A DNA stretch of 64,000 nt from Sphagnum magellanicum (Eukaryota; Streptophyta; Sphagnopsida; Sphagnales; Sphagnaceae). The notes under the pieces were generated by a model. That model searched no databases, was not told the DNA's origin, and saw only the letters and a program-made list of their open reading frames with translations. Both the position numbers and the translations under genes were made by a program. Of this stretch, positions 3,227 through 26,520 are shown piece after piece; position 1 is the stretch's first letter; every line of letters starts with the position of its first letter. The DNA lies in contig CM038923.1 in NCBI GenBank assembly GCA_021904315.1, positions 4,340,001 through 4,404,000 of the forward strand. Direction: 5' to 3'.

Positions 3227-3640
3227 GTCGTGACATGTAGTGTCATGACATATGATGTCTGTCATGCCTGTACATGATGGCCAGTTACGAGCATGCCCAT
3301 GTGCGCTTTTAGGGTTAATGTACGGTCTTAGGCAACTGTATGCTATTAGGTACTTAGGGTTTCGGTTTGTTGGCGATGGTATAAAAGGCCCAAACCTTTC
3401 TTTCTCCTTTTAGTTTTTCTAGAATTCCTTTGTCATGAACTTCCTCCATAATAAGCTAGGATTTCTAGATGCTCATGGCGGCCATTGCACAACCACCATA
3501 TACATTTCATTTCCTTCTTTCATTGTAATTCAATTCTAGAAAAACTACATTTTCTGTTGCTTCATGTTGAAAGCAAAAGATTTCTTTGCATGTGAGTTTT
3601 TAAGTTATCATTGCTACTGCTAGTGTTATTAGTGTTGCTG
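3227..3640 (+). repeat. 5' LTR of Gypsy copy A, 5'-truncated
   Basis: This matches 14830-15125 (3' LTR of A) and, reversed, 26520-26823 (5' LTR of B). A TATA box, TATAAAAG, lies at 3380-3387 in the shared phrase before AGGCCCAAAC. The first ~165 bp of the 3' LTR (14663-14830) are missing here, so the left end is lost and no TG end or target duplication can be read. The right boundary and primer-binding site are not resolved; 3640 is approximate. Confidence 0.75.
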
Positions 3641-5244: not shown

Positions 5245-6072
5245 ATGTCCTTTGACGATGAGAGCACTACCGCTCAGCTAAAGCCCAGGTATCAGCTACG
5301 AAGTAACACACAATCCTTTGAGCCGATTTCTTTAAGTTCACAATCTTCACGACGGTACCATCATGTGTCTATAGCACCATTGTCATCTAGTATAACTCCT
5401 ACCAAGAATTCAGGTTCTAGTTACACTACATCAACAATACATCAAAGTCCATTTGGAGGGGTTAATTAGTGGGGTACGCCTATTGCTGCACATACTTTCA
5501 CACCATCACCGTATACTCCATTGCAAGCTGTGACTTCAACACCCATTTACACCATGGAGGTTAGAAGTTCCTCTGGGAGAATTGAGAAGTTCAACGGAAG
5601 GCCAAATACTATTTCTTTGAAGGAGTTCAAGGCAACTTTCTCAACTGTGGTTTGTGAATTGGAGCTCAAGTATGGCGCTAATTACACCGAGGCGTTTGCA
5701 TTCAAACAATTGGCTCGTTATGTGCACTATGAGGCATTGGATGTCTACGAGCAACATTCTGCAAGGATTTTGGGTGTCACCCAAATTCCCAATAAAGCTT
5801 ACGCCATAGCCATCGCCATCGCCTCTCAAGCTGCATTGTAAGCTGCAATTGCACATCACGGGATTGTGCCGAATAATCCAGACCTGGTAACTACCTTAGT
5901 AAACCTTTCTCCTCAACATTTCATTGTTACTACTGTAAATATTCCTCCCACCACCGATGCGCCAGATTTTGCTAATCCAGTGGGGGAATTCTTTCGAATT
6001 CTTGAGCTGGAATTTCCAGTTAAAAGTTCAAGAAAAATTTTGCAGTTCGCCATCTTCTCTCGGCAAAAGGAT
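5245..6072 (+). pseudogene. gag, N-terminal part, copy A
   Basis: The frame opens at ATG 5245 (reading M-S-F-D-D-E), directly after a leader boundary conserved in copy B (ATG complement at 25794). It continues in one phase to 6072 through stops at 5467 (TAG) and 5839 (TAA), where copy B has CAA. A Ser/Thr-rich N-terminus is followed by a globular segment with F-N-G-R-P and E-L-K-Y-G-A-N-Y, typical in style of retrotransposon capsid. Gag would form the particle that packages element RNA. Here it is cut off by solo LTR-1, and the next ~500 bp, including the zinc knuckles, are missing. Assignment rests on position and on copy B. Confidence 0.75.
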
Positions 6073-6893
6073 TGATGCACTCCCAACTCTTCAAAAGGCT
6101 CACACAACCCACACAAAGTGGTTAGTGCATAGTTGGAGCACCCTTGGTGCTAGGACGAGCCACGGGCAACACGGACACACAAAACTCACCACAGCCCGGA
6201 CTTGGGGGAAGCCACCACCTTCCCCCTTATAATATACTCTGCAGCTCTCCACGGAGGCTACATCCAAATGGCTATTTTTCCCGGGACTCCCGAGTGGGAG
6301 TCCCGAAATTGCGCCAAATGGGATTCCCACGACTTTGGAGCCCCATAACTTTGCGAGCAGACCTCTAATTGAGGTGCGGTCTAAAGAAAAGTTATAGCTC
6401 TCGTCGAGAGCTTTTCAATGATATGTGGCACGCCCCTTGCAACTAAGTAAATCAGGTCGATTCCCGACTTTTTGTGGTCGGAAGTCAAACTGGCAATTCG
6501 ACTCCCGGCCCTTCTTGTGGCCATAACTTGTGTTTTAAATGTTCAAATGAGCAATGCGAGCCCATTTTAAACATCTACGTTCCAAGAGCTTTCCAATTAT
6601 ATAAAGAACGCCACAAGACATTGAGGTTTGACACTTGCAATCGCTCTCTAAAGTTTCGGGAGTCCACCGGAACTCCATCTCCCAAAGTGGGAGTTGCCTT
6701 GGGAGTGTGAGGGTTCATTCCCTCATACTCTCTCACACTTTCTAACACTCCCGGGAGTATGTGATGTGACTCCCCGGGATCCTCTTGGCCCACACCCTTA
6801 CAATGCCTTTGCCTTAACTCCCGAGCTTCCTCTTGGCCCGCACCCTTGTAATGCCTTTGCCTTGGTCGCGAGCCCAAAACTAGGGTTGCGATA
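6073..6893 (+). repeat. Solo LTR-1 nested in gag of copy A
   Basis: The family ends are TGACGCACTCCCAA and GGGTTGCGACA; here they read TGATGCACTCCCAA and GGGTTGCGATA. It is closest to LTR-5 (22341-23315), sharing the block around CACAACCCACACAAAGTGG, but has lost about 140 bp near its 5' end. The 5-bp flanks AGGAT and GCTAG do not match, unlike the other copies. Aligned with copy B, the two flanks are about 500 bp apart in gag, so a deletion removed the original flank. Confidence 0.85.
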
Positions 6894-7566
6894 GCTAGCA
6901 TCTTCCGCTGTCCCTCAACCAAAAGCCAAAGCACCTCAACCTTCCACTCAGGCTTTGCCCACCAAGGGTAATTCCAACAAAAATGTTAAGAAGAAGGAGC
7001 ACAATGCTAACAAGAAAAAGGTGCTTCAAGCCCATGTAATTGAAGTTCAGACTTTACAAAATGAACTCGAATCATTGAGGGCTCAATTTGCTAATCTAAA
7101 AAGCAACCAGCTAGTCATGCCCAACCTGTAGAAGGTTTAGGATCACGAGAGGGACCTCCTAGGTCGTTCTATGGCCTTCCACACGATGCCATGGTTGGGG
7201 AGTATGTTCTTTCCACTCCACGCAATTCTAATCTCACACCAAAATTTGCTACTTCTTTTTGCCCTTCTTATGTCACAACACAAGAAGCTAGTGTGGCACC
7301 CAAAGTTTATGCCACTAGGTAGGTAATTCAGACTAATGGACTCGCATCTGGTTCAAGTCCGATTACCAGGGCTAGAGGAGCTCGAGCAATCATGCCACAA
7401 TCTTTTCGTCTTCTCAACATGGAAGTAGAACGCACCTTATTGGCAAGGGGGAGGAGACTACTACACCACAAGCTGTTAGGGCATCAAATTCTCGTGTCCC
7501 AAGAGTACATGTACATCAAGAAACACACAATTTTCCACTGATCAGCTTATGGAATGCTAACTTCAA
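6894..7566 (+). pseudogene. gag C-terminal region and gag-pol linker, copy A
   Basis: After LTR-1 the sequence resumes inside gag. A Lys-rich stretch (around 6960-7025) is followed by a heptad-like segment with V-Q-T-L-Q-N-E-L-E and L-R-A-Q-F-A-N-L, probably a short coiled coil. Copy B has the matching region, with its zinc knuckles lying upstream. Stops near 7128-7140, around 7320 and just before 7567 break it; copy B has CAA at the last. The Gypsy sequence GTATGTTCTTTCC near 7201 is the empty site for LTR-5 of copy B. Confidence 0.65.
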
Positions 7567-8694
7567 ATGCATGAAATGGTGCAAAAGCTTGTGAGTACAC
7601 CATTGTTTTGTTTTCAAAATTTGAAGCTAAGCACGAACGACATAATTGCAATCTTAGAAGATACCTTGAACATTACATCAGGTCCTCTACTAATCCCTGA
7701 TCCACATGTTCCAGAGGTCCCATCCAACACCTTGGAAAGACATTTGATTGGCTCATGTGTTGCAGATGGCGTTCGTAATCTAATCACTAGTTCTAGCATG
7801 GCTAAACTAGTGGGCTTTCCTACCTCTGATTCTACATTCACATATCAGAAGGGAGTTCAGAACACCTCACTTGTGGATTTGTTACTCAGCAAAGGTGTTG
7901 TGGATAGCCATTCTCTCCACAAAGTTTCTCACTCATTTCCGAAGGTGGTGCCTGGTGAAAGAACTTCCATCGCCACCAGAGTTGCCATTGTCGACAATAT
8001 TGGGTCAGCAATCCAAGTGGGAGGACATACACCCAGAGTGGTACTTCTTGACACAGGTGTCCAACCAATGATTCTTGGAGTTCAATTCGCCAAGAAGATG
8101 GGCATGCTTGACTCCAAACTACGGAAATTTATGTGGTAGATTCGCACCGCTAGTGGGAGCGTAGAAGAGGTACTTGGGGAAAGCTCGGATTTGATTGCAC
8201 TTAAGTTAAATGAAGGTACATATCAGGGGCTTTGCTTACAGGTCAGATGTTTAGTCACCAATGCCACAAGTTATGATGTGTTCATTGGGCAAGAGGCCCT
8301 GTTTCCACCAGGTTTCACAATTGACAACTGGTTCGAGCATGCGTACTACCAAATGGATTGGGAGATTGATGGCCACCACCTGGGATACATACCCCTTGAT
8401 TTACATGGGAACCATAGTCCTATGGTTCACCATTGTATGCTCAAGGAAGCACACACCATTTCCTACATCCAACAAGCTAGCCACGAATGGATAGAGGGAG
8501 ATGAGGAGGAGATATTTTATGCTCAAGCTACTGAAAGTTTGAAGGTGGTTCCTACTGACATTCAACATGGACCAGAGGTTTTACGAAGGTTCAAAGTAAT
8601 CCACAAGCCCTTGGTCAAAGCTTTGTCTAGTTTTGAAAGCATGGAGAGCCATGGCGAACTGATTAAGCCATTACTTCATCAACTAATCACCTGG
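7567..8694 (+). pseudogene. Retropepsin-type aspartic protease and linker, copy A
   Basis: The catalytic loop reads V-V-L-L-D-T-G-V-Q-P-M-I-L-G, with the D-T-G triad intact, near 8038-8079. Upstream are about 150 residues of unrecognised pol N-terminus. After the protease a segment of about 180 residues with W-F-E-H-A-Y-Y and D-L-H-G-N-H leads into the methyltransferase. The enzyme would cleave the polyprotein during particle maturation. A TAG at 8137 interrupts the frame (CGA in copy B); beyond it the same phase continues. Copy B instead has D-I-G, so its protease is catalytically dead. Confidence 0.8.
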
Positions 8695-9680
8695 ACACCA
8701 CCTAAGGAAGGGATTACATTACTAGAGCTCTTTGGTGGTATTGGTACAGGTCTAGAAGCCCTACTACAGGCAGGGATGGTGGTTCGGAGGTATTTCTACG
8801 TAAACATTGATCCTATTGCAAGGCAAATGGCGGCATCAAGAATGAGGGAGTTCACAACAAGATTTCCACAACAATTTGCAACCACCGCATGGAAGGCTAG
8901 TTTCACGTTTTTGCCCTCTAACATACAACTAATTTAGAAGAAGCATATGGAATTACTTGGCCCTGTCGACCTCATCATTTCAGGTTGGGAGTGTCAAGGA
9001 TTTTCAGCGGTTGGATTTGGAAAAGGCTTAAGTGACACAAAATCTGGTCTTTTCACGGACATGATACGATTGATCACCTGGGCTCAATCCATTTCTCCTA
9101 CACTTGGTTATGTAATTGAGAACATTCCTCCTCAGCTTGATTAGAGGGAGAAAGTTTAGGAACACTACACACTGGTCAAGCATTACCTTGGAGAGTCGCT
9201 CTTACTTGATGTGGCACAATGCGGTTCCTATGCGCATCGGCTGCACAACTGGTGGACCAACTTGGCACCACTTTCAGTTTTGCAGCTAGCTCTAAAATAC
9301 ACTATCAGAAACCCGAACCTGCAGGTTTCTCACATACTGGATGATCAAAGTTCTTGCCAACCAATTACAAGGCAAGAAAAACCTCCTTGGTTTCATGCGA
9401 ACACAATAGGAAAACCAAGAGGTGCTTGGCCCACCTTTGTCTCCTTCCCAGGAGCACACGCCTTTCAGGGAGATGGGCCAGGCCTGGTGTATCGTCATGC
9501 TTCAGCCAGTTGGGATGAACCAAGCCTAGAAGAAAGAGAAAGGGCTATGGGGTTCCAAGTTAGCACTACTAGTCACACTAAGGTAATTAGATTAGAACGT
9601 AATGTTTTACTAGGGAAAGGCATGGACCTGAATTCCTTTACATGGTTGTTGGTAACTTGTGTACTCTTTCAAATGTACAC
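8692..9680 (+). pseudogene. C5-cytosine DNA methyltransferase domain within pol, copy A
   Basis: The ordered motifs of a cytosine-5 methyltransferase are visible. Motif I (cofactor binding) reads L-F-G-G-I-G-T-G at 8728. An acidic N-I-D-P-I-A-R-Q follows (D-I-D-P in copy B). Motif IV reads G-W-E-C-Q-G-F-S with the catalytic Cys codon at 8992-8994. Motif VI is E-N-I at 9118-9126. Motif VIII-like A-H-R lies at 9232-9240, then a presumed target-recognition segment, motif IX-like E-R-E-R-A-M-G-F near 9535, and motif X-like L-L-G-K-G-M-D-L-N near 9607. The order is canonical, not permuted as in plant DRM enzymes. The usual Pro before the catalytic Cys is Glu here and Gln in B. Stops at 8935, 9142 and 9157 disable it. 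It lies in frame between protease and RT. Confidence 0.88.
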
Positions 9681-9984: not shown

Positions 9985-10758
9985 AACTAGCTCACCAAGA
10001 AGGAGAGAGACCAAGTCACAAACTTGCTAATTAAATATGAGAATGTGTTTGCATTCTCAATGAAAGACTTAGGTAAGTGTAAGACCATGCAATTCTCTAT
10101 AGACCTTACAGATGAGACACCTGTCTATCGAAAGAGGCATAGGTTGAGCAAACATGAATGGGAACTAGTAGATGAAAGATGCAAAGAGCTCCATGAGGCT
10201 GGTCTCATTCAGCCATCAAGTTTTGATTTCGCAGCCGCTACAGTAATGCCAGCAAAGAAAGATTCAACTGGATTATAGACTGAGAAAAGGATGTGCGGGG
10301 ATTATAGGCCTTTGAACCTAGTTACACCGCAAGATAGGTACCCCATGCCCATCCCTGAAGAATTGTTTGATAGCATTGGAGATTCAAACCTCTTCACAAT
10401 TGTGGATCTGAGGCAAGGTTTCAACCAGATTGTGCTCGCTGCAAAGGATCGCAAGAAAACAACATTCCATGGAAGCAACAAGTTATGGGAATGGCTTGTG
10501 ATGCCTTTTGGATTGAAGAATGCACCTGTCTTTTTTCAACGAATCATGGACCAAGTTCTCGAAGGGGCAAATTTCCTGAAGTGCTACATAGATGACGTCC
10601 TAGTGCATGGCAAGGGACTCCTACAGCATTTGGCTCATCTTGAGGAGTTATTCAAGAAGCTCCACGAAGTCAATATGAAGATCCATCCTAAAAAGTGTGA
10701 GTTTGTTGTCACCTCAGTAATCTACCTTGGACATAGAATTTTGCCAAATGGTATTATG
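9985..10758 (+). pseudogene. Reverse transcriptase, copy A (N-terminal and palm)
   Basis: The frame follows the methyltransferase without a shift. Recognisable blocks are M-C-G-D-Y-R-P-L-N, L-V-M-P-F-G-L-K-N-A-P and the active-site Y-I-D-D-V, so both metal-binding aspartates survive. The ending G-H-R-I-L-P-N-G-I-M is the usual Gypsy RT phrase before the thumb. In-frame TAGs lie at 9988 (CAA in copy B) and 10276 (TGG in copy B). Solo LTR-2 cuts the domain after 10758 and the coding sequence resumes at 11583. RT copies element RNA into cDNA. Confidence 0.93.
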
Positions 10759-11577
10759 TGACGCACTCCCAAGTCCCAGGTTGAACCCACTTGAGGGTCC
10801 AACTATGTTGAGTTGCAGAAAGTTGGGACTTGAAGGGCGCTCCCGACTTCCAGCACTAAAGAGGGGTAGAGGGGCGTGCTAGAAGTCCTGGGATTAGACT
10901 AGAAAGATGGACTAGAAGATCAAGCACGAATCTGCATCCAAAACCAACCACAAGAGGGTTAGTTCACATTCGGAAACACCCTTGGGTGTTGGGACAAGCC
11001 ACGGGCATTTTTACACATAAGACTCACCACGGCCCAAACTCGGGGGAAGCCACCACCTTCCCCCATATAGTATACTCTGCAGCTCTCTGCCGAAGCTACA
11101 TCCAAATGGCTCTTTTTCCCGAGACTCCCAAGTTGGAGTCCCGAAACTGTCCCGAGTTGGAATCCCGGGACTTTGGACAGCCATAGCTCCTCGCCGTGAA
11201 TTCAGATTGGGACGAGCTCTCAACAAAAGTTGTAGCTCTCATTGAGAGCTTTCCAATGCCATGTTGCACTCCTTGAGGCGACGTCGGAAAGAGGTCGATT
11301 CCCGACTTTTAGTGGTCGGGAGTCAAACTAGCAGTTTGACTCCCGGCCCTTCTTTTGCCCATAACTTGGGCTGTAGATGTCCAAATGGCCAATGCAAGGC
11401 CATTTTGAACATCTACGCTTCAAGAGCTTTCCATTGATATAAAGAACGCACCAAGACCAGAAGATTTGACCCCTCAAATCATCTTCTGAGTTTTTGGGAG
11501 TCTCGGAGGACTCCATTTTCCCACTTTTGGGAGTGGGAGTTGCATTCTCCCACCTTGCCCAAAGTGGGGTTGTGACC
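10759..11577 (+). repeat. Solo LTR-2, target duplication TTATG
   Basis: The element is 819 bp, starts TGACGCACTCCCAAG and ends GGGGTTGTGACC (family end ...GACA). The 5-bp duplication TTATG is at 10754-10758 and 11578-11582. Copy B keeps the uninterrupted site (GGTATTATGGCTCATTGGG, reversed near 18035-18055), proving a clean insertion. No internal retrotransposon sequence is present. Confidence 0.95.
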
Positions 11578-11582
11578 TTATG

Positions 11583-11925
11583 GCTCATTGGGCCAAAGTA
11601 GTAGCCATTTTGGAGATGCCGAATCCTACTGATGTTCACACGTTGAGGAGCTTCATCGGACTATGTAATTATTATAGAATTTTATGTCCAAGATTTTAGT
11701 ACTATTGTTCTTCCTCTCTATGCATTGTTAAAGAAGGATGTTGCTTGGACATGGAGTGATGAAGCTCAGGAAGCTTTCGACACACTCAAGGAAAAGCTTT
11801 CAAAGTTTCCCATTCTGAAAAGACCTGATTTCAACAAGGTTTTCATTCTACACACCGACTGGAGTGCTTTTGGTATTGAAGCTATTCTTGGCCAACTTGA
11901 TGAAGAAGGCAAGGAATATGTTATC
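11583..11925 (+). pseudogene. RT thumb/connection and start of RNase H, copy A
   Basis: The coding sequence resumes after LTR-2 with P-N-P-T-D-V-H-T-L-R-S, the Gypsy connection phrase. It passes through W-T-W-S-D-E-A-Q-E-A-F to the first RNase H block, I-L-H-T-D-W-S-A-F-G, which carries the first catalytic Asp. A frameshift lies around 11680-11700, near the N-Y-Y-R-I phrase. Solo LTR-3 interrupts the RNase H domain at 11926. Confidence 0.88.
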
Positions 11926-12744
11926 TGACGCACTCCCAAGTCTCGAGTTGAACCCACTTGAGGGTCTAACTATGTTAAGTTGCAGAAAGTTAGGACTTGA
12001 GGGGTGCTCCTGACTTCCAGCACTAATGAGGGGTAGAGGGGCGTGCTAGAAGTCCCGGGATTAGACTAGAAAGATGGACTAGAAGATCAAGCTTGAATCT
12101 GCATCCAAACCAACCACAAAAGGGTTAGTTAGCATTCGAGAACACCCTTGGGTGTTGGGACAAGCCACGGGCAACTTGGACTACTTGACTCACCACGGCC
12201 TGGACTCAGGGGAAGCCACCACCTTCCCCCATATAGTATTCATTGCATCTCACCGCGGAAGCTACATCCGAATGGTTCTTTTTCCCGGGACTCCCAAGTT
12301 GAAGTCCCGAAACTGTCCCGGGTTGGAGTCCCGGGACTTTGGACGGCCATAGCTCCTCGCCCCAAACTCAAATCGAGACAAGATCTAAACCAAAGTTGTA
12401 GCTCTCGTCAAGAGCTTTCCAACGCCATGTCGCACTCCTTGAGGCGACGTTGAGAAGAGGTCGATTCCTGACTTTTAGTGGTCGGGAGTCAAACTGGCAA
12501 TTTGACTCCCGGCCCTTCTTTTGCCCATAACTTGGGCTGCAAATGTCCAAATGGCCAATGCGAGGCCATTTTGGACATCTACGCTTCAAGAGCTTTTCAT
12601 TGATATAAAGAACGTGCCATGACAAGGAGATTTGACCCCTCAAATCGTTTTCTGAGTTTTCGGGAGTCCCGAAGGATTCCATCTTCCCATCTTTGGGAGT
12701 GTGAGTTGCATTTTCTCACTTAGCCCCAAAATGGGGTTGCGACA
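11926..12744 (+). repeat. Solo LTR-3, target duplication TTATC
   Basis: The element is 819 bp with intact TG...CA ends (TGACGCACTCCCAAG to GGGTTGCGACA). TTATC is duplicated at 11921-11925 and 12745-12749. It splits the RNase H coding phrase V-I/I-A-Y-A-S. It is the best-preserved member here and very like LTR-2, with the same length and the same internal hairpin block. Confidence 0.96.
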
Positions 12745-13060
12745 TTATCGCCTATGCATCCCGAAGTAACAACAAGGCTAAGAGCAACTACTTTTCATAC
12801 GAAGGGGAGTGCCTTGCTGTTGTATGGGCTATCATACATTTCAGGCCCTATCTTTATGGCACCAATTTCACTTTGTATACCAACCACCAACCTATCAAGT
12901 GGTTGATGACCAATGATAAGCTTACTGGTAAGTTAGCTCGTTGGGCGTTTATACTTCAAGAGTATGAGTTCAAGGTTATTCACTAACCTGGTATTACACA
13001 TCAGAATGCGGATACCATGTCACGAAAACCCTTCACTACCTCTAAAGATTTTTCAGAAGC
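12745..13060 (+). pseudogene. RNase H domain, copy A (remainder)
   Basis: Blocks read I-A-Y-A-S-R, S-Y-E-G-E-C-L-A-V-V-W-A-I (second catalytic acidic residue), then T-N-H-Q-P-I-K-W-L where Gypsy elements usually have T-D-H. Copy B has I-D-H at this place, so the third acidic residue is lost in A. The Y-E-F-K-V-I-H phrase follows, with a stop directly after it. RNase H would remove the RNA strand during cDNA synthesis. Confidence 0.85.
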
Positions 13061-14155
13061 CAAGCAAGATTTTGACCAGATTCCAACAATACATGTATAT
13101 AAGGCATCTAGTTATCTTGCACTACTGCAATGTAACCTGGTTGAGCATCTCATTTTCGATATATGGGAGGACTTGGACATTCTGAGGTTTCTTCAACATA
13201 GGGAATACCCTCCCCAAGTTACGTCAAGTCAGCGAGATCGCGTACAATAGCGATCCAAATGCTATTCATGGAGGGAGAATCACCTCATCTGATGCTTACC
13301 ACAAGGCGACAGAGTGGTTCCACTACCACATGAACGGCCTGGTCTTATTCAAAAGGTACATTCGAAGCTTGTACACTTTGGAGTTAAGCGTACTTATAGC
13401 CTTCTCGCTCCTCATTACCATTAGAGAGGTATGTATGCTCAAGTCCGAGACATCATTGCTAGGTGTGAACAATGTGATAGAGTGAGAACTTCTTTCTCCT
13501 TTCGACAACTCACGCTTTTTCCATTCCCTATTCAAGGCATGTTTTATCGTTGGTCATGTGATTTAGCTGGAGAGTTACCACAAACCTCTAGGGGTAATGT
13601 TTACATCATGAATATGATTGAGCATTTTTCAAAGTGGGTTGAGCTTGTTGTGCTACCAGACAAATCATCACACAGCACCAGCCAGGCTTTCTTACAACAG
13701 GTTCTAAGTAGGTTTGGGGTTTGTGCTGAGTGCCTTACTAATCAAGGATCAGAATTCAGGGGAAAATTCCAAGAGCTATTTGACCATGCTCTCATTAACC
13801 ATCGTCGAACTTCAAGAGATCATCCTCAAGCTAATGGCCTTGCATAAAGGATGGTTCAAACATGCAAAAAGGGACTTCGGAAGATTTGCCTCACTAAGAA
13901 CAAAAAGGATTGGGACCTGGCCCTCCCATACATCGCCATGGGTTACAAGATGTCCAAACACACTTCCTTATCTCATTTCTCTCCTTACTTTTTACTTTTT
14001 GGGAGACATCCTATTCCACCCTCTTCCATTGCTCCTTAAATGGACCAGGTTGTGGACTTGGATTCCCAAGCCACTTGGGCTAGGGTCATTGCAGAAAGGG
14101 CTGCTCTATTCAGGAGGGTTATGCCCATGGCCATGGAAAACTTGTCCATTGCACA
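13061..14155 (+). pseudogene. Integrase core, copy A
   Basis: An HHCC-type zinc-binding region (H-F-G-V-K-R ... H-Y-H-W-R-G ... C-E-Q-C) lies around 13375-13480. It is followed by the DDE core: W-S-C-D-L-A-G-E-L, then L-T-N-Q-G-S-E-F where D is expected in place of N, then R-D-H-P-Q-A-N-G-L-A with the catalytic Glu codon turned into TAA at 13844-13846. Copy B keeps T-D-Q-G and A-E-R-M. Two of the three catalytic positions are therefore lost in A. Later stops and shifts follow, near 14038 and around 14157. Confidence 0.9.
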
Positions 14156-14608
14156 ACATTGAGACACACCTTACGATATGCACACACACGAGGTGGTAGT
14201 TACAAACCTAAGGTGAGACAATTTTATGTTGGTGATTTTATATATCTCCTGCGGCAACCAAATGATACTCTAGACATTTTTTCCAGTCGCACTATCTTGA
14301 GGATTAAGGCGACCAAGCCTTTAGGTGTGTTGGAACTACAAGGATCTAACGGATGCACAATTCATGATCATTCCAAAAATTGTGTGCCCTGCCACCTGCC
14401 GAACTTGGATCCTACCATCATCACGTTGACTTGGATTCCTCCACTTTATTATCCATGTCAGGTATGTTAGAGGATGGACAATGCTGATCAGATGCTGCTT
14501 TGTGACAACTGTAATGGTGGATAGCATCTCTTCTACCTCAAGCCGGAGCTCACTCAAGTTCCCGCCGGCAATTGGTACTATTCATCATGTTCTCCTACAG
14601 CACCTTGA
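14156..14608 (+). pseudogene. Integrase C-terminal region ending in a PHD finger, copy A
   Basis: After a V-G-D-F-I-Y-L-L-R segment typical of the Gypsy integrase tail, the frame enters a PHD zinc finger at 14456-14590. It has C-x2-C, then D-Q-M-L-L-C-D-N-C-N-G-G, His, L-F followed by Tyr where Cys is expected, and N-W-Y-Y-S-S-C. PHD fingers read histone H3 tails. Stops at 14468 and 14519 (CAA and TAC in copy B) break it, and the frame ends at TGA 14606. The polypurine tract is about 40 bp further on, so the finger is the true C-terminus of pol. Copy B has the same 45-codon finger and the same stop. A chromodomain, usual in chromoviruses, is not seen. Confidence 0.85.
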
Positions 14609-14649: not shown

Positions 14650-15125
14650 AAGGGGGGATACATGAGAATTTCATTTCAGCCTCACTTGTGCATTGTATAT
14701 ATATGTGTGCATGCATATCTTTTTAGTTGATTAGTTTATACCTTTGATTAGCTTTAATCTTTTAGTTTAGTAGAATTTACTATGTATTTACATCCTTACG
14801 ACATTATACGTCACGACACTACACATCACGATAGTTGTCATGCTCGTACATGGCCTCATACATGATGGCCAGTTATGGGCATGCCCATGTGCGCTTTTAG
14901 GGTTAATGTACGATCTTAAACGACTATACGCTATTAAGTACTTAGGGTTTCGGTTTGTTGGCAATGGTATAAAAGGCCCAAACCTTTTTTTCTCTTTTTA
15001 ATTTTTCTAGAATTCCTTTGTTAGGAACTTCCTCCATAATAAGCTAGAATTTCTAGATGCTCACGGCGGCCATTGCACGGCCACCGTCTACATACATTTC
15101 ATTTCCTTCTTTCATTGTAATTCAA
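14650..15125 (+). repeat. Polypurine tract and 3' LTR of Gypsy copy A, 3'-truncated
   Basis: The purine run AAGGGGGGATA at 14650-14660 primes plus-strand DNA in this element class. The LTR starts TGAGAATTTC at 14663. A TATA box TATAAAAG lies at 14968-14975. The sequence runs in parallel with the 5' LTR from about 14830. It stops at about 15125, after TTCATTGTAATTCAA, and joins an inverted leader fragment, so the end of R/U5 is missing. Confidence 0.85.
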
Positions 15126-15444: not shown

Positions 15445-15601
15445 TGTCATAAGGGGTGTAAATCCATAGTAAACTTTATTAAACAAAAAGACTGAAACCG
15501 GCCAAAATTAGAAACTAATCAACCAAAAAAAGATGCACGCACATATATATACAATGCACGAGAGGAGGCTAAGATGAAATTCTTATGTATCCCCCCCCTA
15601 G
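15445..15601 (-). repeat. 3' LTR start and polypurine tract of Gypsy copy B
   Basis: On the minus strand the polypurine tract (AGGGGGGGGATA, complement of 15588-15599) is followed by the LTR start TAAGAATTTC at 15585, where copy A has TGAGAATTTC. Only about 140 bp of U3 is present before the junction near 15445 with the leader fragment. Confidence 0.8.
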
Positions 15602-15640
15602 ACTTGAGCCAGGAAAAGCGTGGCATGGTCTGAGTAGAAA

Positions 15641-16063
15641 TCATGGTGCTACAAGAAAACATGATGAATAGTACCAAATGCCAGTGAGAACTTCAATGAG
15701 CTCCACCTTGAGGCAGAAGAGATGGTATCCACCATTACATTTATCACAAAGCAACATCTGATTAACATCGCATGTCCTTTGACATACCTAACATGGATAG
15801 TCAAGTGGAGGATTCCAAGTCGACGTGATGATGGTAGGATCCAAATTCAGTAGGTGGCAGGCCACACATTTTTTGGAATGATCTCAAATTATGCGTCCGT
15901 TAGCTCCTTGCAACTCCAACACACTGGAAGGCTTGATTACCTTAATCCTTAAAATAGTGTGACCAGAAGAAGTGTCTAAAATATCATTAGGTTGTCGCTG
16001 GAAATACACAAGTCACCAGCATCAAATTGTCTCACCTTAGGTTTGTAACTACCACCTTATGTG
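15641..16063 (-). pseudogene. PHD finger and integrase tail, copy B
   Basis: The PHD finger spans 15793 down to 15659, 45 codons as in copy A. It has C-x2-C, Q-M-L-L-C-D-K-C-N-G-G-Y-H-L-F-C and W-Y-Y-S-S-C. The Y-H and following Cys lost in A are intact here; the Cys expected two residues after the Trp is Tyr in both copies. One TAG lies between the first two cysteines. The terminal TGA is at 15643-15641. Upstream is the integrase tail, split from the core by a MITE. Confidence 0.85.
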
Positions 16064-16258
16064 CATAGTTATGACATTCTTGGTGCGAGAATGTTATGGA
16101 AGCCCAAAGAAGCAAGAATTTTAAAGAATTTTTAAAAAATTTATAGATCAACCAGTGTAATTTGGTAAACATTCGCGGGTAAAGAATGTTATGACAAGGT
16201 GCTAAATGAAGAATTTTAAAGAATTTTAATGTGCAAAATGAAGAATGTCATAACTATG
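16064..16258. mobile_element. hAT-type MITE, 195 bp, target duplication CTTATGTG
   Basis: The terminal inverted repeats are a perfect 18 bp, CATAGTTATGACATTCTT at the left and its complement at 16241-16258. The flanks 16056-16063 and 16259-16266 are identical 8-mers (CTTATGTG). Copy A has no such insert at the matching place near 14185. Eight-base duplications point to the hAT superfamily. The interior is AT-rich, has no ORF and repeats the phrase AGAATTTTAAAGAATTTT, so it is non-autonomous. Confidence 0.95.
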
Positions 16259-16266
16259 CTTATGTG

Positions 16267-17160
16267 TGTGCATACCGTAAGGTGTCTCAATGTTGTGCAA
16301 TGGAAAACTTCTCCATGGCCATGGGCATAACCCTTTTGAATAGAGCAGCCCCTCTGTGATGACCCTGGCCCAAGTGGATAGAGAGTCCAAGTCCACAACC
16401 TAGTCCATTTGAGCAGCAATGGAAGAGGGTGGAATGGGATGTCTCCCAAAAAGTAGAAAGTAAAGAAAGAAATGAGACAAAGAGACATGTTTGGACATCC
16501 TGTAACCCATGGCGATGTAAGGGAGGGCCAAGTCCTAATCCTCTTTGTTCCTAGTGAGGCAAATCTTCTAAAGTCCTTTCTTGCATGTTTGAACCATCCT
16601 CTCTGCAAGGCCATCAGATTGGCGATGATCTCTTGAAGTCCAGCGATGGTTAATGGAAGCATGGTCAAGTAGGCCTTGGAATTTTCCCTTGAATTTTAAT
16701 CCTTGATCAGTAAGGCACTCAGCATAAGCCCTAAACCTACTTAGGACCTGTTGTAAGAAAACTTGGCTGGTGTTGTGTGATGATTTGTCTGGTAGCGTAA
16801 CAAGCTCAACCCACTTTGAAAAATGTTCGATCATAATCATGATGTAGACATTACCCCTGGAGGTCTGTGGTAACTCTCTAACTAAATCACATGACTAGCG
16901 ATAAAACATGCCCTAAATAAGGAATGGAGAAGGTGTGAGCTGTCGAAAGGAAAAAGAAGTTCCCACCCTATCATATTGTTCACACTTAGCAATGATGTCT
17001 CGGACTTGAGCATACATACCTCTCCAATGGTAATGAAGAGTGAAAAGGCTATAAATACGCTTAACTCCAAAGTGTTCAAGCTCTGAGTGTACCTTCTGAA
17101 TAAGATTAGGCCATTCATGTGGTGGAGGAACCACTCCATCGCCTTGTGGTAAGCATCGAA
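16267..17160 (-). pseudogene. Integrase core, copy B
   Basis: The zinc-binding region has H-Y-H-W-R-G and C-E-Q-Y where the last Cys is expected. The DDE core keeps S-C-D-L, L-T-D-Q-G and G-L-A-E-R-M-V-Q-T, so all three catalytic acidic residues are present, unlike copy A. A TAG replaces a Trp codon just before the first Asp, and frameshifts follow after the core. Confidence 0.9.
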
Positions 17161-17770
17161 TGAGGTGATTGTCCCTCCATGAATAACGTTTGGATCGTTG
17201 TTGTATGCTATCCCGATGACTTAATGTAACTTGAGGAGGGTATTCCCCATGCTAAAAAAACCTTAAAGTGTCCAAGTCCTCCCATATATCCACAATGGGA
17301 TGCTCAACCAGGTTACATTATAGTAGTGCAAGATAACTAGATGCATTAGATACATGTATTACTGGAATCTGGTCAAAATCTTGCCTAGCTTCTAAGAAAT
17401 CTTCAAAGGTAATGAGGGGTCTCCACGACATGGTATCCACGTTCTGATGTGTAATACCAGGTCGGTGAATAACCTTGAACTCATACTCCTGAAGTATAAG
17501 CGCCCAACGAACTAACTTACTAGTAAGCTTATTGTTGGTCATCAACCACTTGACAGGCTGGTGGTCGATATACAAAATGAAATTGGTGCCATAAAAATAG
17601 GGCTTGAAATGTATGACGACCCATACAATAGCAAGGCATTCCCCCTCTTATGAAAAGTAGTTGCTCTCAACCTTGTTGTTACTTTGGGATGCATAGGCGA
17701 TAACATATTCCTTGCCTTTTTCATCAAGTTGGCCAAGAATAGCTCCAATACCAAGAGCACTCCAATTAAT
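17161..17770 (-). pseudogene. RNase H domain and integrase N-terminal linker, copy B
   Basis: Visible blocks are Y-I-D-H-Q-P-V-K-W-L-M, W-A-L-I-L-Q-E-Y-E-F-K-V-I-H-R-P-G-I-T-H (the usual Gypsy RNase H ending) and an uninterrupted I-A-Y-A-S equivalent around 17690-17710, the empty site of LTR-3 in copy A. Frameshifts occur around 17540-17760. Catalytic Asp at I-D-H is retained. Confidence 0.85.
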
Positions 17771-18526
17771 GTGTAGAATGAAGGCCTTGTTGAAATCAGG
17801 TCTTTTTAGAATGAGGAACTTTGAAAGCTTTTCCCTGAATGTGTTAAAACTTCGTGAGCTTCATCACTCCATGTCCAAACAACATCCTTCTTTAACAATG
17901 CATAGAGAGGATGGGCAATAGTATTAAAGTCTTGGACATAAATTATGTAGTAATTACATAATTCGATCAAGCTCCTCAACGTGTGAACATTAGTAGGATT
18001 GGGCATCTTTAAAATGGCTATTACTTTTGCCCAATGAGCCATAATACCATTTGGCAAAACTCTATGTCCAAGGTAGATTACTGAGGTGACAATAAACTCA
18101 CACTTTTTAAGATGGATCGTCATATTGACTTCGTGGAGCCTCTTGAATAACTCTTCAAGATGAGCCAAGTGTTGTAGGAGTCCCTTGCTATGCATTAGGA
18201 CGTCATCTATGTAGCATTTCAAGAAATATGCCCCTTTGAGAACCCGGTCCATGACTCGTTGAAAGAAGACAAGTGCATTTTTCAGTCCAAAAGGCATCAC
18301 AAGCCATTACCACAACTTGTTGCTTCCATGGAATGTCATTTTCTTGCGATCCTTTGTAGTGAACTTAATTTGGTTAAAGCCTTGCCTCAGATCCACAATT
18401 ATGAAGATGTTTGAGTCTCCAATGTTATCAAACAGTTCTTTAAGGATGGGCATGGGGCACCTATCTTGAGGTGTAACTAGGTTCAAAGGCCTATAATCCC
18501 CACACATCCTTTTTTCAGTCCATAAT
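17771..18526 (-). pseudogene. Reverse transcriptase palm to connection, copy B
   Basis: The blocks M-C-G-D-Y-R-P-L-N, M-P-F-G-L-K-N-A-L and Y-I-D-D-V are readable, followed without interruption by Y-L-G-H-R-V-L-P-N-G-I-M-A-H-W and N-P-T-N-V-H-T-L-R-S. The unbroken G-I-M-A-H-W stretch is the empty target of LTR-2 in copy A. A stop sits after N-K-L-W near 18305. LTR-4 separates this part from the RT N-terminus. Confidence 0.92.
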
Positions 18527-19329
18527 TGTCGCAACCCCACTTTGAGGGAGTGGTGAGGTCGCCACTCACATTCCCGAAAATGGGACTTGGGAGTCCTCCG
18601 AGACTCCCAGAAACTCAGAGCGCAATTGCAGGGGTCAAAACACCTTGCATTGGGGTGTTCTTGGTACTGTTGGAAAGGTCTTGAAGTGAAGATGTCCAAA
18701 ATGGCCTCACATGAGCCATTTGGACATCCACAGCACAAGTTATGGTCAAAAGAAGGGCCGGGAGTCAAACTGCCACTAAAAGTCAGGAATCGACCCAATT
18801 CGGGTGCGTGTAAGTGAAGTGCGACACACCGTTGGAAAGCTCTTGACAAGAGCTACAACTTTGGTTTAGACCTCGTCCCAATTCGAGTTTGAGGCGAGGA
18901 GTTATGAGCATCCAAAGTCCCGGGAGTTCAAACCGGGACAGTTTCGAGACTCCACTTTAGGAGTCCCGGGAAAAAGAGCCATTTGGATGCAAGTCTCGTG
19001 GAGAGCTGCAGAGAATACTATATGGGGAAGGTGGTGGCTTCCCCCGAGTCCGGGCCGTGGTGAGTCAAGTGAGTCCAAGTTAGCCTGTGGCTTGTCCCAA
19101 CACCAAAAAGGTGCAGAATGAGTTCTAACCCATTTGTGGGTTGGATTTGGATGCAGGACCGTGTAATTGAGTAAGCTTGTCCCTCTTCCTAGTCTATCCC
19201 AGAACTTTCAGCATGCCCCTCTCACTCCCTTTAGTGCTGGAAGCTGGGAGCGTGCCCCGAGTCCTAAAAATTCTGCAACTTGAGTGAGTTAGCCCAATTG
19301 GGGCTAACTTGGGACTTGGGAACGCGTCA
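18527..19329 (-). repeat. Solo LTR-4, target duplication ATTAT
   Basis: Read on the minus strand it starts TGACGCGTTCCCAAG and ends GGGGTTGCGACA; 803 bp. The duplication appears on the plus strand as ATAAT at 18522-18526 and 19330-19334. Copy A shows the uninterrupted site at 10264-10285 (GGATTATAGACTG). No internal element sequence is present. Confidence 0.95.
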
Positions 19330-19735
19330 ATAATCCAATTGAATCCTTCTTTGCTAGCATCACTATAGTGGCTGCAAAATCATAACTTGATGGCTAACTG
19401 AGACTTATTTCATGGAGCTTTTTGCATCTTTCATCTACTAGTTCCCACTCATGCTTGCTCAACCTATGCCTCTTCCGATAGATGGGTGTCTCATATGTAA
19501 GGTTTATAGAGAACTACATGGTCTTACACCTACCTAAGTTTTTCATTGAGAATGCGAACAGATTCTCGTACTTAATTAGCAAGTTTGTGACTTGGTCTTT
19601 CTCCTTCTTGGTGAGTTGGTTCCCCATAATGAAAGGGTAGTTGGAAACACATGGAATGGAATTGGAAAGTGTGTTTGAAGAACTTAGTGTATTGGGTTCT
19701 CCACTATCCAACTACACAGATCCGTAGAAGGTTGT
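19330..19735 (-). pseudogene. Reverse transcriptase N-terminal part, copy B
   Basis: This is the counterpart of 9895-10275 in copy A, including the N-Q-L-T-K-K-E-K-D-Q-V and Y-E-N-L-F-A-F-S phrases typical of the start of Gypsy RT. Copy B has N-Q-L where A has a TAG. A stop lies after the C-K-T-M phrase. LTR-4 ends it near 19330. Confidence 0.8.
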
Positions 19736-20960
19736 AATTGTTTTTCCAAAAGTTGATGTACATCTAGGTGTATCAGACACAATTTGAATGAAATTACATG
19801 GTACCTCCTCCCCCCCTAACACTACAAGTGAAATATAAAATGTTGAAGATAGGCAAATGTACTTGGTCGGGGTGCCATGTGATCGCATCACCAAAACTGC
19901 AAGCTGATTGAATCGGTGTTGGTGTTGTGTACATTTGAAAAAGTACATAGGTTACCAACAACCATGTAAGGGAGTTTAGGTCCATGCCTCTCCCCAATAG
20001 AGCGTTACACTCCAATTTAGTCACCTTAGTGTGATTAGTAATGCCAGCTTGGAACCCCATAACCCTTTCTTTTTCTTTTTGGTGTGTTCTTGGGAAGGAG
20101 ACAAAGGTGGGCCAAGCACCTCTTGGTTTTCCTATTGTGTTCGTAAAAAACCAAGGAGGTTTTTCTTGCTTTGTAATTGGTTGGCAAAAGCTCTAATCAT
20201 CCAATATGTGAAAAACCTGCAGGATGGGGTCTTTGATGGTGTATTTCAAAACCAACTACAGAATTGAGAGTGGTGCCAAGTTGGTCCACTAGTTGTGCAA
20301 CCGGTGCACATAGGAACTACATTGTGTCGCATTGAATAGGAGGGGTTCTCCAAGGTAATGTTTGACCAGCGTGTAGTACTCCTAGATTTTTTCCCTTTGG
20401 TCAAACTGAGAAGGGGTGTTTTCAATTACATAACCAAGCATAGGAAAAATGGATTAAGCCTAGGTGATTAATCGGACCATGTCTGTGAAGAGACCAGATC
20501 TTGTGTCACTCAAGCCTTCTCCAAATCCACCACTAAAAATCTTTGACACTGCCAACCGGAAATGATGACGTTCATGGGGCTAAGTAATTCCATATTCTTA
20601 TTCTGAATTAATTATATGTCAGAGGGTAAAAAAGTGAAACTGGCCTTCCATGCGGTGGTTGAAAACTATTATGGAAATCTAGTTGTGAGTTCCATCATTC
20701 TCGATGCCGCCACTTGCCTTGCAATAGGATCAATGTCTACGTAGAAATACCTCCAAACCACCATCCCTGATTATAGTAGGGCTTTGAGACTTGTACCAAT
20801 ACCACCAAAAAATTCTAATAATGTAATCCTTTCCTTAAGTGGTGTCCAGGCGATTAGCTGACGAAGTATTGGCTTAATCGATTCACCATGGTTCTTCATG
20901 TTCTCAAAATTAGACAAAGTTTTGACCAAGGGTTCGTGGGTTGCTTTGAACTTCTGTAAA
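19736..20960 (-). pseudogene. C5-cytosine DNA methyltransferase domain, copy B
   Basis: The minus strand carries a decayed copy of the same domain. Motif I reads F-F-G-G-I-G-T near 20800-20820, then V-D-I-D-P-I-A-R-Q, then I-S-G-W-Q-C-Q-R-F with the catalytic Cys retained (around 20543-20551). Motifs VIII-X survive in pieces in other phases, including L-L-G-R-G-M-D-L-N near 20000. Several stops and at least one frameshift after motif IV make it non-functional. A second, independently decayed copy shows the domain was part of the element family, not a chance insertion into copy A. Confidence 0.85.
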
Positions 20961-22020
20961 ACCTTTGGTCCTTGTTAAATGTTAGTAGGAACCACCCTCA
21001 AGCTTTCAGTAGCTTGGGCGTAAGCTGTTTCCTTTTCATCTCCCTCTATCCATTCGTGGCTAACTTGTTGGATGTAAAAAATAATGTGTGCTTCTTGAAC
21101 ATACAATGGTGAGCCATAGGATTATGGTTCCCATATAAATCAAGGGGTATGTATCCCAAGTGGTGGCCATTAATCTCCCAATCCACTTGGTAGTACGCAT
21201 GCTCGAACCAGTTGTCAATTGTGAAACCTAGTGGAAACAGGGCCTTTTGCTCAATGAGCACATCGTAACTAATGGCATTGATGACTAAACATCTAACCTG
21301 TAAGCAAAGCTCTTGATCTGTACCTTTATTAAAATTAAGTGCAATCAAATTTGAGTTTTCCTCAAATACTTCCTTTACGTTCCCACTAGTGGTGCGAATT
21401 CGCCACATAGATTTTCGTAGTTTGGAGTAAAACATGCCCATTTTCTTGGTGAATTGAACTCCAAGAATCACTGGTTAGGCACCTATATCAAGAAATATCA
21501 CTTTGGGTGTATGTTCTCCCACCTGGATTGTTGACTCCATATTGTTGACAATGGCAACTCTAGTGGCGATGGAAGTTCTTTCACTAGGCACCACCTTCGG
21601 AAATGAGTGAGAGACTTTGTGAAGAGAATGGTTATCCACAATGCCTTTGTTGAGTAACAAATTCATAAGTGAAGTGTTCTTAACTCCCTGTTGATATGTG
21701 AATGTAGAATCAAAGGTAGGAGAGCCCATTAGTTTAGCCATGTTAAAACTAGTGACTAGATTACGAATGCCATCTGCAACACGTGAACCAATCAAATATC
21801 TCTCCAAGGTGTTGGATGGGACCCATGTAACATGTGTATCAAGGATTGGTAGAGGACCTGATGTAGTGTTCAGAGTATCTTCTAATACTGTTATTATGTC
21901 CCTGGTGCTTAACTTCAAATCTTGAAAACTAAAGAACGATGTACTCATAAGCTTTTGCGCCACTTCACGCATTTGAAGTTGGCACTCCATAAGCTGATTA
22001 GTGGAAAATTATGTGTTTTC
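20961..22020 (-). pseudogene. Aspartic protease and pol N-terminus, copy B
   Basis: The frame opens in a segment beginning M-E-C-Q-L-Q-M at 21990 and runs to the protease loop V-I-F-L-D-I-G-A, where copy A has D-T-G. The Thr to Ile change removes a residue essential in retropepsins. A TAA follows at 21477-21475 where A has CAA; the phase then continues through the linker with N-W-F-E-H-A-Y-Y and D-L-Y-G-N-H. Confidence 0.8.
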
Positions 22021-22340
22021 CTAATGTACATGTACTCTTGGGACACAAGAATTTGATGCCCTAGCAGCTTGTGGTGTAATAGTCTCCTCCCTCCTCGCCA
22101 ACAAAGTGTTTATCTTCCATGTTGAAAGGATAAAAAATTGTGGCATGACTGCTTGAGCTCTTCTAGCCCTGGTAATAGGACTTGAACCAGATGTGAGTCC
22201 ATTAGTCTGAATTACCTGCCTAGTGGCAAAAACTCTAGGTGCCACGCTAGCCTCTTGTGCTGCGATGTAGGAATGGCAAAAAAGAGTAACAAATTCTGGT
22301 GTGAAACTAAAATTGTGTGCACTAGAAAGAACATACTCCC
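22021..22340 (-). pseudogene. gag-pol linker, copy B
   Basis: This corresponds to about 7200-7530 in copy A. A frame on the minus strand reads A-T-R-Q-V-I-Q-T-N-G and S-P-I-T-R-A-R-R-A. No domain is recognised. The 5-bp target CTCCC of LTR-5 lies at 22336-22340. Confidence 0.6.
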
Positions 22341-23315
22341 TAACGCACTCCCAACTCCTTAGGGACTCAAATGTGAGCCCAAGTATAAAATAGCGGAAGA
22401 AGAAGGAGTCGGAGCACGCTCCCTAGCTCACAACACTTTGAGGGGTAGAGGGGCATGTTGGAGCTCCGGGATGGGACTAGGAAGAATTGACAAGCTTCAC
22501 TCATTCACACGGGCCTGCACACAACCCACACAAAGTGGTTAGTGCATAGTTGGAGCACCTTTGGTGCTAGGATGAGCCACGGGCAACACGGACACACAAG
22601 ACTCACCACGGCCCGGACTTGGGGGAAGCCACCACCTTCCCCCTTATAGTATACTCTGCAACTCTCCACGGAGGCTACATCCAAATGGCTATTTTTCCCG
22701 GGACTCCCGAGTGGGAGTCCCGAAATCGCGCCAAATGGGACTCCCGCAACTTTGGAGCCCCATAACTTTGCAAGCAGACCTCGGATCGCAATGCAGTCTA
22801 AAGCAAAGTTGTACCTCTCGTCAAGAGCTTTCCAATGATATGTGGCACGCCCCCCTGCAATTAAGTAAATGGGGTCGATTCCCGACTTTTTGTGGTCGGG
22901 AATCAAACTGGCAATTTAACTCCCGACCCTTCTTTTGGCCATAACTTGTGTTTTAGATGTCCAAATGAGCAATGCGAGCCCATTTTAGACATTTACGCTT
23001 CAAGAGCTTCCAATGATATAAAGAATGCCACAAGACATTGAGGTTTGACCCCTGCAATTGTTCTCTGAAGTTTCGGGAGTCCACCAAGACTCCATCTCCC
23101 AACGTGGGAGTTGCCTTGGGTTGGGAGTGTGAGTGTTCACTCCCTCACACTCCCTCACAATTTCTTACACTCCCGGGAGTATGTGATGTGACTCCCCAGG
23201 ATGCCCTTGGCCCACACCCTTGCAATGTCTTTGCCTTGACTCCCGGGCTTCCTCTTGGCTCACACCCTTGCAAGCCCTTTGCCTTGGTCGCGAGCCCAAG
23301 CCTAGGGTTGCGACA
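22341..23315 (+). repeat. Solo LTR-5, target duplication CTCCC
   Basis: The element is 975 bp, opposite in orientation to copy B. It starts TAACGCACTCCCAAC (family TGACGC) and ends GGGTTGCGACA. CTCCC is duplicated at 22336-22340 and 23316-23320, and copy A has the empty site around 7190-7210. It is the longest member and belongs with LTR-1 to a subfamily that carries extra sequence at both ends. Confidence 0.94.
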
Positions 23316-25794: not shown

Positions 25795-26520
25795 GGTGTT
25801 GCCCATGCCCCAAAATTTTGTAACAATACAAAGCATTAACTACAAAGTTTTAACACAACGTACAGTTTGAAAAATACGATGCGTTGTTGGGAATGACCGA
25901 TGACAAAAGGATGTCGGACGAAGGTCAAACGGACGTTAAATGAAGGCCAGATGGAGGTCGGACAAAAGTCAAACGGATGTTAAACAAAAAGGTAGGACGA
26001 CAAAATGGCAAGATGCAGGACGTTAAAACGCAGGACATAGGATGAATGTCCAACAAAAGTCGAATGAACGTCTGACAAACAAAGGTCAAATGTTACTACA
26101 ACGATGGCAAGCGGCTACACTCGCACTGCTGCAACTCATTGTGCTACAACGATGGCCACCACTGCGCTACAACTCACAACAGTCCAATGATGGTAACAAT
26201 GCCGCACAAATTTTATTTATTTTTTACTTGGTAACTTCAAAACCGTCTCCTCCTGTGTTTCTGCGTGAAATAGAGAAAGAAAGAAAACAAAAAAGAGAAA
26301 AAAAGGGCGGGGAGGAAATTTGAAACTTGCTCCAGGATCCCGAGTCTATTGGCTGGTAGAAATGTAACAACACAAGCTCCCTTCGGCAACAACAACATTA
26401 GCAACAACTTGCTCCCTCTGGTAGCAGCAACACCAACAGCAACAACACCAACAGTAGCAACACTAGTAACAACAACACTAGTAGTAACAACTTAAGAACT
26501 CAAAAGCACAAGAAATCTAC
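25795..26520 (-). repeat. Leader of Gypsy copy B with GTC and AAC repeats
   Basis: Between the LTR and gag the minus strand has a GTCCGAC/GTTCG-rich block (25890-26090), a short GCAACG-type stretch (26090-26190) and a GTTGTTGTT-rich block (26390-26470). It is about half as long as copy A's leader because the 49-bp array is not expanded. No conserved ORF is seen. Confidence 0.7.

What the first reader, a model, noticed from the sequence alone, without database searches (positions are those of the whole stretch)
8692..9680. A DNA methyltransferase domain built into Gypsy pol
Motifs I, IV, VI, VIII-, IX- and X-like blocks of a C5-cytosine methyltransferase stand in canonical order, in the same reading frame as the protease before it and the RT after it. 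The same domain occurs in copy B. Ty3/Gypsy elements normally have nothing between protease and RT. From memory, capture of such enzymes by retrotransposons has been reported in a charophyte alga and a dinoflagellate; I do not know of this arrangement in a land plant. An element that writes DNA methylation could influence its own silencing, its siRNA supply or rival elements.
Basis: partly seen in the sequence, partly recalled or inferred. Interest (0 to 1): 0.95.

Follow-up and report, generated by a model that had tools for sequence, protein, structure and literature searches.

The report
Moss jumping gene carrying DNA methyltransferase
A peat-moss retrotransposon carries its own DNA-methylating enzyme and, in most copies looked at, a chromatin-reading finger; open copies and relatives in liverworts extend to land plants a kind of selfish element reported before from a green alga and dinoflagellates.

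Summary
Confirmed and extended. Window 8692-9680 holds a decayed C5-cytosine methyltransferase (three TAG stops), in frame between protease and RT of a Gypsy-type element; an inverted, more broken copy lies beside it. The genome (439 Mb, by a chromosome length Sphagnum magellanicum) holds at least 117 scored copies. In 20 hand-picked open copies MTase, RT, RNase H and integrase stand in that order, in 19 with a PHD finger after integrase. Among six copies MTase dN/dS is 0.13 (RT 0.23). Named relatives: Marchantia, Calypogeia, other Sphagnum, weakly Closterium. The MTases form one clade beside DNMT3A/B (100/99). In copies resolved the ends are A1-gag/pol-B1-A2-B2 or A-gag/pol-B, with TG..CA tips and 4-bp duplications: the DIRS-like layout reported for KnitGypsy-Dnmt3 of Klebsormidium. 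So the kind is known (de Mendoza 2018). My searches found no paper on such elements in mosses or liverworts or with a PHD finger. Further variants, not searched for in full: Glu instead of Pro before the catalytic Cys, a TAG-CAR-YYA stop before RT in a sister type, and a second MTase position. Likely role: methylating the element's own new DNA; activity is untested.

The parts
3300..3534 (+). copy A: 5' terminal repeat A1 (decayed)
   Evidence: 75.5% match to repeat A of genomic copy L028; pairs with 14859-15125
5245..7560 (+). copy A: gag region, broken, with one nested insert (about 6101-6891)
   Evidence: position and frames; repeats; no Pfam family, inferred
8011..8340 (+). copy A: aspartic protease (LDTG motif)
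   Evidence: Asp_protease_2 E 0.0038 on 7561-8136, below the family cut-off; colinear with the protease of Calypogeia P0030; end approximate
8692..9666 (+). copy A: DNMT3-like C5-MTase domain; TAG stops at 8935, 9142, 9157; motif IV GWECQG
9991..10758 (+). copy A: reverse transcriptase (TAG at 10276)
   Evidence: RVT_1 E 2.8e-29 on 10279-10758
10759..11577 (+). nested repeat of about 820 bp inside pol, TTATG on both sides
   Evidence: repeat families; ends read
11647..11925 (+). copy A: RNase H, first part
   Evidence: RT_RNaseH_2 E 2.7e-15
11926..12744 (+). second nested repeat, TTATC on both sides
12705..12983 (+). copy A: RNase H, second part (open piece; its first bases belong to the insert)
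   Evidence: RT_RNaseH E 2.1e-26
13425..13844 (+). copy A: integrase core
   Evidence: rve E 1.1e-10
14456..14590 (+). copy A: PHD finger remnant (two stops)
   Evidence: reading; without stops in other copies; PHD E 8.4e-10 in P0075 of S. magellanicum
14658..14831 (+). copy A: repeat B1
   Evidence: 83% match to repeat B of L028
14833..15125 (+). copy A: repeat A2; no B2 was found after it
   Evidence: 72% match to repeat A of L028
19941..20848 (-). copy B: MTase domain, frameshifted (ends carried over from copy A)
15445..26811 (-). copy B: second, inverted copy (A at 26781-26560, B at 15590-15445)

Best explanation
The feature is the methyltransferase of a family of DNMT3-carrying, Gypsy-type retroelements of mosses, liverworts and other, mostly unnamed, hosts. 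Shown by sequence: protease, DNMT3-like MTase, RT, RNase H, DDE integrase and PHD finger are encoded in that order, in one frame in the best moss copies; the element has split repeats, TG..CA tips and 4-bp target duplications; the MTase is under purifying selection, on average at least as strong as on the RT. Inferred: the MTase acts within the Gag-Pol particle or pre-integration complex and puts 5-methylcytosine on the element's own newly made DNA, while the PHD on the integrase steers insertion to nucleosomes with unmodified H3K4, so that new copies arrive already marked in quiet chromatin (less damage to the host, protection from foreign-DNA sensing, or held for later release). The copies in the window are decayed relics.
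For: Copies and colinearity. Selection: mean dN/dS MTase 0.13, RT 0.23, integrase 0.14 (15 pairs of 6 copies), PHD 0.07 (10 pairs); MTase below RT in 13 of 15 pairs. Catalytic Cys and the Glu-Asn of motif VI in 31 of 31 family rows. Confident model of the L007 domain (pLDDT 94.9, pTM 0.93). DNMT3 affinity: DNMT3A 84.6 bits against 46.2 for the plant enzyme 4onj, DRM2 37.7, HaeIII 34.6, HhaI 31.1, DNMT2 25.5; tree support 100/99. The PHD of L007 matches CHD4, PHF12, UHRF1, KDM5, PHF21A and ATXR5 among its best hits, several of them known readers of unmodified H3 (recalled). Recent insertion: one mismatch in 313 between A1 and A2, none in 178 between B1 and B2 of L028. Precedent: SymbioDIRS-Dnmt3 enzymes methylate CG de novo in yeast (PMC5890265, section 10 read).
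Against: No activity data here. KnitGypsy-Dnmt3's domain gave no methylation in yeast, which its authors call inconclusive because human DNMT3B also failed. The moss type has Glu where the references have Pro, which could lower or change activity. The PHD is not universal: Pfam lists none in the long proteins P0164 and P0174, which have an integrase, and only a below-cut-off match in P0194; the moss PHD itself was not compared with solved structures. Window copies A and B, set against L028, show most C-to-T change at CHG (17-31%) and CG (9-27%) against CHH (5-12%), as expected from host silencing. CpG is as depleted or more so in the rest of the window (0.25) and three flanks (0.19-0.36) as in the element (0.36). 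Copies A and B show no codon-position bias. Two of the six copies used for dN/dS (L024, L031) have one stop in the MTase, and the pairs are not independent.
Confidence: 0.55

Rival explanations
1. DNMT3L-like helper: the moss Glu variant has lost or weakened catalysis and acts by binding DNA, AdoMet or host methyltransferases to recruit methylation or aid particle assembly.
For: Motif IV has Glu in place of Pro in 17 of 17 moss copies of this type and in 12 of 14 rows of its part of the tree.
Against: The catalytic Cys and motif VI Glu are kept in 20 of 20 moss copies read and 31 of 31 family rows; selection is on average as strong as on RT.
Confidence: 0.2
2. Weapon or shield outside its own DNA: the enzyme methylates host genes or rival elements, or RNA, rather than its own cDNA.
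For: SymbioLINE-Dnmt was inactive on yeast DNA and its authors suggest RNA as a possible substrate.
Against: Position inside the polyprotein next to RT and integrase, kept in two different places, suggests work in the particle.
Confidence: 0.15
3. Passenger: a captured domain without function in the element.
For: Most copies are broken: 14 of 118 listed rows lack stops, 13 of them over most of the query.
Against: dN/dS 0.13; open frames; one clade over mosses, liverworts and unnamed sources at about 33-50% identity between its main branches with motifs kept.
Confidence: 0.04
4. Bacterial or phage origin of the enzyme instead of DNMT3.
For: The block GWPCQGHSRAG..GLDDPRSGLF of relatives resembles metagenome C5-MTases; the DNMT3 branch is long and treekit warns of it.
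Against: All three conserved blocks align with DNMT3A, the best match; DNMT3A/B join the family at 100/99 against 8 metagenome C5-MTases taken as bacterial, HhaI, DNMT1 and DNMT2.
Confidence: 0.08

Closest known systems
KnitGypsy-Dnmt3 of Klebsormidium nitens (de Mendoza et al. 2018, PMC5890265)
   Same: Dnmt3-type MTase inside Gypsy Pol; repeat layout like DIRS with Gypsy domains; Ka/Ks below 0.2; streptophyte host (sections 9 and 10 read).
   Different: In the main text PHD, readthrough and proline occur 0 times; its figures and supplements were not seen, so the place of the MTase in its Pol is unknown to me.
SymbioDIRS-Dnmt3 and SymbioLINE-Dnmt of Symbiodinium (same paper)
   Same: Retroelement-borne DNMTs under selection; the DIRS ones methylate CG and also occur with two orders of domains in Pol.
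   Different: Other element classes (DIRS, LINE), other hosts, separate acquisition according to the paper.
Chromodomain Gypsy elements (chromoviruses; recalled)
   Same: A chromatin reader at the C-terminus of integrase.
   Different: PHD finger instead of chromodomain, and an MTase in pol.
Animal DNMT3 with its ADD domain (recalled)
   Same: DNMT3 catalytic fold combined with a PHD-like reader.

Membership tests
C5-cytosine methyltransferase | Motifs I, IV (Cys), VI (Glu), VIII, X in order | tested here: met
   Pro of motif IV is Glu in this type
DNMT3 | Groups with DNMT3 in a tree and in profile comparison | tested here: met
   only two human DNMT3 references, no plant host DNMT3, DRM, CMT or MET1 in the tree
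DNMT3 | DNA methylation activity | not testable with these tools
   needs an assay
Ty3/Gypsy retrotransposon | Order RT, RNase H, DDE integrase after protease | tested here: met
   no RT tree with outside references was made
Ty3/Gypsy retrotransposon | The same long terminal repeat at both ends | tested here: not met
   A1..B1-A2-B2 in 4 of 7 copies, A..B in 3 of 7
DIRS/YR retrotransposon | Split direct repeats | tested here: met
   also L016
DIRS/YR retrotransposon | Tyrosine recombinase and no target duplication (recalled) | tested here: not met
   rve integrase; 4-bp duplications in 7 of 7 copies
KnitGypsy-Dnmt3 | Gypsy Pol with Dnmt3 and DIRS-like repeats | tested here: met
KnitGypsy-Dnmt3 | Sequence kinship with the Klebsormidium element | tested here: inconclusive

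The most novel reading that the evidence does not exclude
A selfish writer-reader chromatin system carried by plant-lineage retroelements since before mosses and liverworts parted: a DNMT3-derived MTase methylates the element's own DNA before or at insertion while a PHD finger on the integrase picks nucleosomes with unmodified H3K4; in one large clade the enzyme works with Glu instead of Pro beside the catalytic Cys.
Probability: 0.35. Interest if true: 0.9.

Novelty: new variant of a known kind. Interest (0 to 1): 0.72.

Why it matters
DNA methylation is a main means by which plants silence retrotransposons, so an element that keeps its own DNMT3-like enzyme under selection may turn a host defence into an element function. 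Finding it in Sphagnum and in the model liverwort Marchantia (where such proteins are listed as hypothetical, or in one case under a DNA (cytosine-5) methyltransferase name) makes the question of what retrotransposon DNMTs do testable in plants with methylome tools, and warns that counts of plant DNMT genes may include element proteins.

Tried and rejected
Plain LTR element: rejected after the ends of seven copies. Selection read from copies A and B: rejected, no codon-position bias. CpG depletion as a sign of self-methylation: rejected, the surroundings are as depleted. Selection on the Pro-type copies: too few differences. Viral contigs: six loci with 30-50% identity over short stretches, not followed; the P0059 scan gave none. 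RT and integrase trees are poorly resolved and do not settle whether the second MTase position arose by moving or by exchange. L007 is recorded as a cyanobacterial MAG contig; I treat it as a eukaryotic contaminant, host unknown.

Chosen subsets: dN/dS used 6 of 17 Glu-type copies (equal length; L024 and L031 with one MTase stop each, stop codons skipped), leaving out L024 for protease and L023 for PHD. The 20 fetched copies were picked by hand from 124 rows for long open frames and no stop in the Pfam match; some rows that also fit (for example on C3, C6 and C7) were not taken, so this is no random sample. Trimming kept 58 of 207 matching proteins; the tree took 31 of these plus P0030 (cut separately), P0175, L007 and window A, and 8 of 10 stored metagenome MTases.

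Full report
WHAT IS THERE. The window frame from 7561 to 10758 reads protease, a C5-cytosine MTase and RT with six TAG stops, three in the MTase. Pfam DNA_methylase matches 8938-9141 at 5.7e-7; RVT_1, RNase H and rve follow in order; the protease piece matches only below its family cut-off. An inverted copy B lies at about 15445-26811; its MTase is frameshifted. The two copies differ without codon-position bias (MTase 58, 30, 51; RT 17, 11, 16), as two dead copies would.

THE SAME GENOME. The window is G000:C17:4340001-4404000 of a 439-Mb assembly. Its contig C15 has 18,169,471 bases, the length listed for the contig of P0075, named Sphagnum magellanicum; I take the genome to be that species. 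A DNA_methylase search gave 124 matches, a lower bound that may include other methyltransferase genes. A search with MTase P0002 gave 118 rows from 117 scored of 1,054 first-look candidates; 14 rows have no stop, 13 of them over most of the query; the window copy is listed with three TAG. I fetched 20 loci picked for long open frames. RT, RNase H and integrase follow the MTase in 20 of 20, a protease was found before it in 19, a PHD finger after integrase in 19. L027 and L028 are open from the start of the piece, upstream of the protease, through the PHD. Thirteen of 20 have no stop in the MTase; in one of these (L035) an insertion splits it. Seventeen are of the window's type, three of a second type 65-67% identical to Marchantia P0140. 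The catalytic Cys is read in 20 of 20, after Glu in the 17 and after Pro in the 3.

SELECTION AND AGE. For six window-type copies of equal length, mean dN/dS by NG86 is 0.13 for MTase, 0.23 RT, 0.14 integrase, 0.32 RNase H (15 pairs), 0.27 protease and 0.07 PHD (10 pairs). MTase is below RT in 13 of 15 pairs (ranges 0.07-0.33 and 0.13-0.53). Two of the six have one MTase stop; pairs are not independent. L028 has one mismatch in 313 between A1 and A2 and none in 178 between B1 and B2, so it inserted recently.

ENDS. L028, L023, L024 and L026 end as A1-gag/pol-B1-A2-B2 (A 313 bp, B 178 bp in L028); L027, L025 and L030 have A..B only. All seven start with TG, end with CA and are flanked by perfect 4-bp duplications (TAGG, AACT, GTTC, CAGC, CTCT, GGAG, TGAC), read. 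In the second type L016 shows the same layout with TTTC on both sides; L018 shows A1 and A2 but B2 was not resolved; no A pair was found for L017. The junction CGACAGCTGTCA occurs in L028, L023, L024, L026, L016 and, once, in L007. Window copy A keeps A1, B1 and A2; no B2 was found. Split repeats with a DDE integrase and target duplications fit neither plain LTR nor DIRS elements.

RELATIVES. One search found 274 proteins (120 listed), among them rows named Sphagnum compactum, S. magellanicum and Calypogeia fissa (64% identity; protease and MTase in one protein). add Marchantia polymorpha (for example Mp_4g09160, Mp_8g17980, and MARPO_0091s0058 with RT and RNase H), Sphagnum troendelagicum, S. 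fallax, a weak Closterium hit and many unnamed proteins. L007, a 9,285-bp contig with identical 127-base ends filed under a cyanobacterial MAG, has by eye gag zinc knuckles and a protease motif, then MTase, one TAG, and RT-RNase H-integrase-PHD by Pfam. The stop is TAG CAA TCA in L007 and TAG CAA CTA in 3 of 3 second-type moss copies; both fit the TAG-CAR-YYA readthrough motif of tobacco mosaic virus (recalled). In P0151, P0155 and P0156 the MTase lies between RNase H and integrase, with a PHD at the end; P0154 and P0157 show MTase-integrase-PHD. P0164 and P0174 have protease, MTase, RT, RNase H and integrase in one frame but no PHD by Pfam, so the PHD is not universal.

WHAT ENZYME. A family profile scores DNMT3A at 84.6 bits, the plant enzyme 4onj 46.2, DRM2 37.7, HaeIII 34.6, HhaI 31.1, DNMT2 25.5, with three colinear blocks on DNMT3A. 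In a 48-row tree the 35 element MTases form one group (99/98) joined to DNMT3A/B (100/99) against 8 metagenome C5-MTases, HhaI, DNMT1 and DNMT2; treekit warns of long branches. The window groups with Calypogeia P0030 (100/100) and then with the RNase H-MTase-integrase type (99/93). In this 14-row part of the tree (99/97) the residue before the Cys is Glu in 12 and Pro in P0154 and P0180. The L007 domain is modelled at pLDDT 94.9, pTM 0.93; a fold search and a second model could not be run.

HOW IT LIKELY WORKS. Shown: coding order, selection, recent insertion, integrase-type ends. Inferred: MTase activity, cis-methylation of new DNA, PHD-guided insertion. The PHD of L007 resembles CHD4, PHF12, UHRF1, KDM5, PHF21A and ATXR5, several of which read unmodified H3 (recalled); such matches do not prove a ligand. 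Against: the Glu in motif IV; no activity of KnitGypsy-Dnmt3 in yeast, called inconclusive by its authors; C-to-T decay strongest at CHG in the window copies, as for host-silenced elements.

KNOWN OR NEW. de Mendoza et al. 2018 (PMC5890265; abstract, sections 9, 10, 11 and found passages read) describe KnitGypsy-Dnmt3 with DIRS-like repeats and Gypsy domains, and DIRS and LINE cases in Symbiodinium. PMC12344493 (passages) cites streptophyte and dinoflagellate cases, naming LTR Copia and DIRS. PMC10952607 and PMC6453930 (passages) do not mention such elements in the passages seen. Searches (20 of 53 listed) showed no paper that, by title and abstract start, reports them in mosses or liverworts, or with a PHD finger or readthrough stop. 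I made no search for the Glu in motif IV or for the second MTase position in Gypsy elements. The library is open-access only. I therefore call this a new variant of a known kind.

Noticed in passing
6101-6891, 10759-11577, 11926-12744, 18520-19340, 22404-23313, 24158-24989: Six related repeats of about 800 bp nested in copies A and B; two were read at their ends: they start TGACGCACTCCC and have TTATG and TTATC on both sides, so probably solo LTRs of another family.
   Followed up: partly
L016-L018 (TAG at oriented base 2536), L007:3489-3491: TAG-CAR-YYA stop between MTase and RT, suggesting that RT-integrase is made by readthrough in the second moss type and in L007.
   Followed up: partly
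P0151, P0155, P0156 (also P0154, P0157): A different placement of the MTase, between RNase H and integrase, in unnamed elements.
   Followed up: partly
P0161, P0175: Element-like proteins of Marchantia and Sphagnum carry database names like DNA (cytosine-5-)-methyltransferase and may be counted as host genes.
   Followed up: no
P0075 (S. magellanicum CY35_15G039600): An annotated moss gene model that combines pieces of protease, MTase, integrase and PHD of this element into one predicted protein.
   Followed up: no
7561-10758: All six frame stops of copy A are TAG, in line with C-to-T change at CHG sites.
   Followed up: partly
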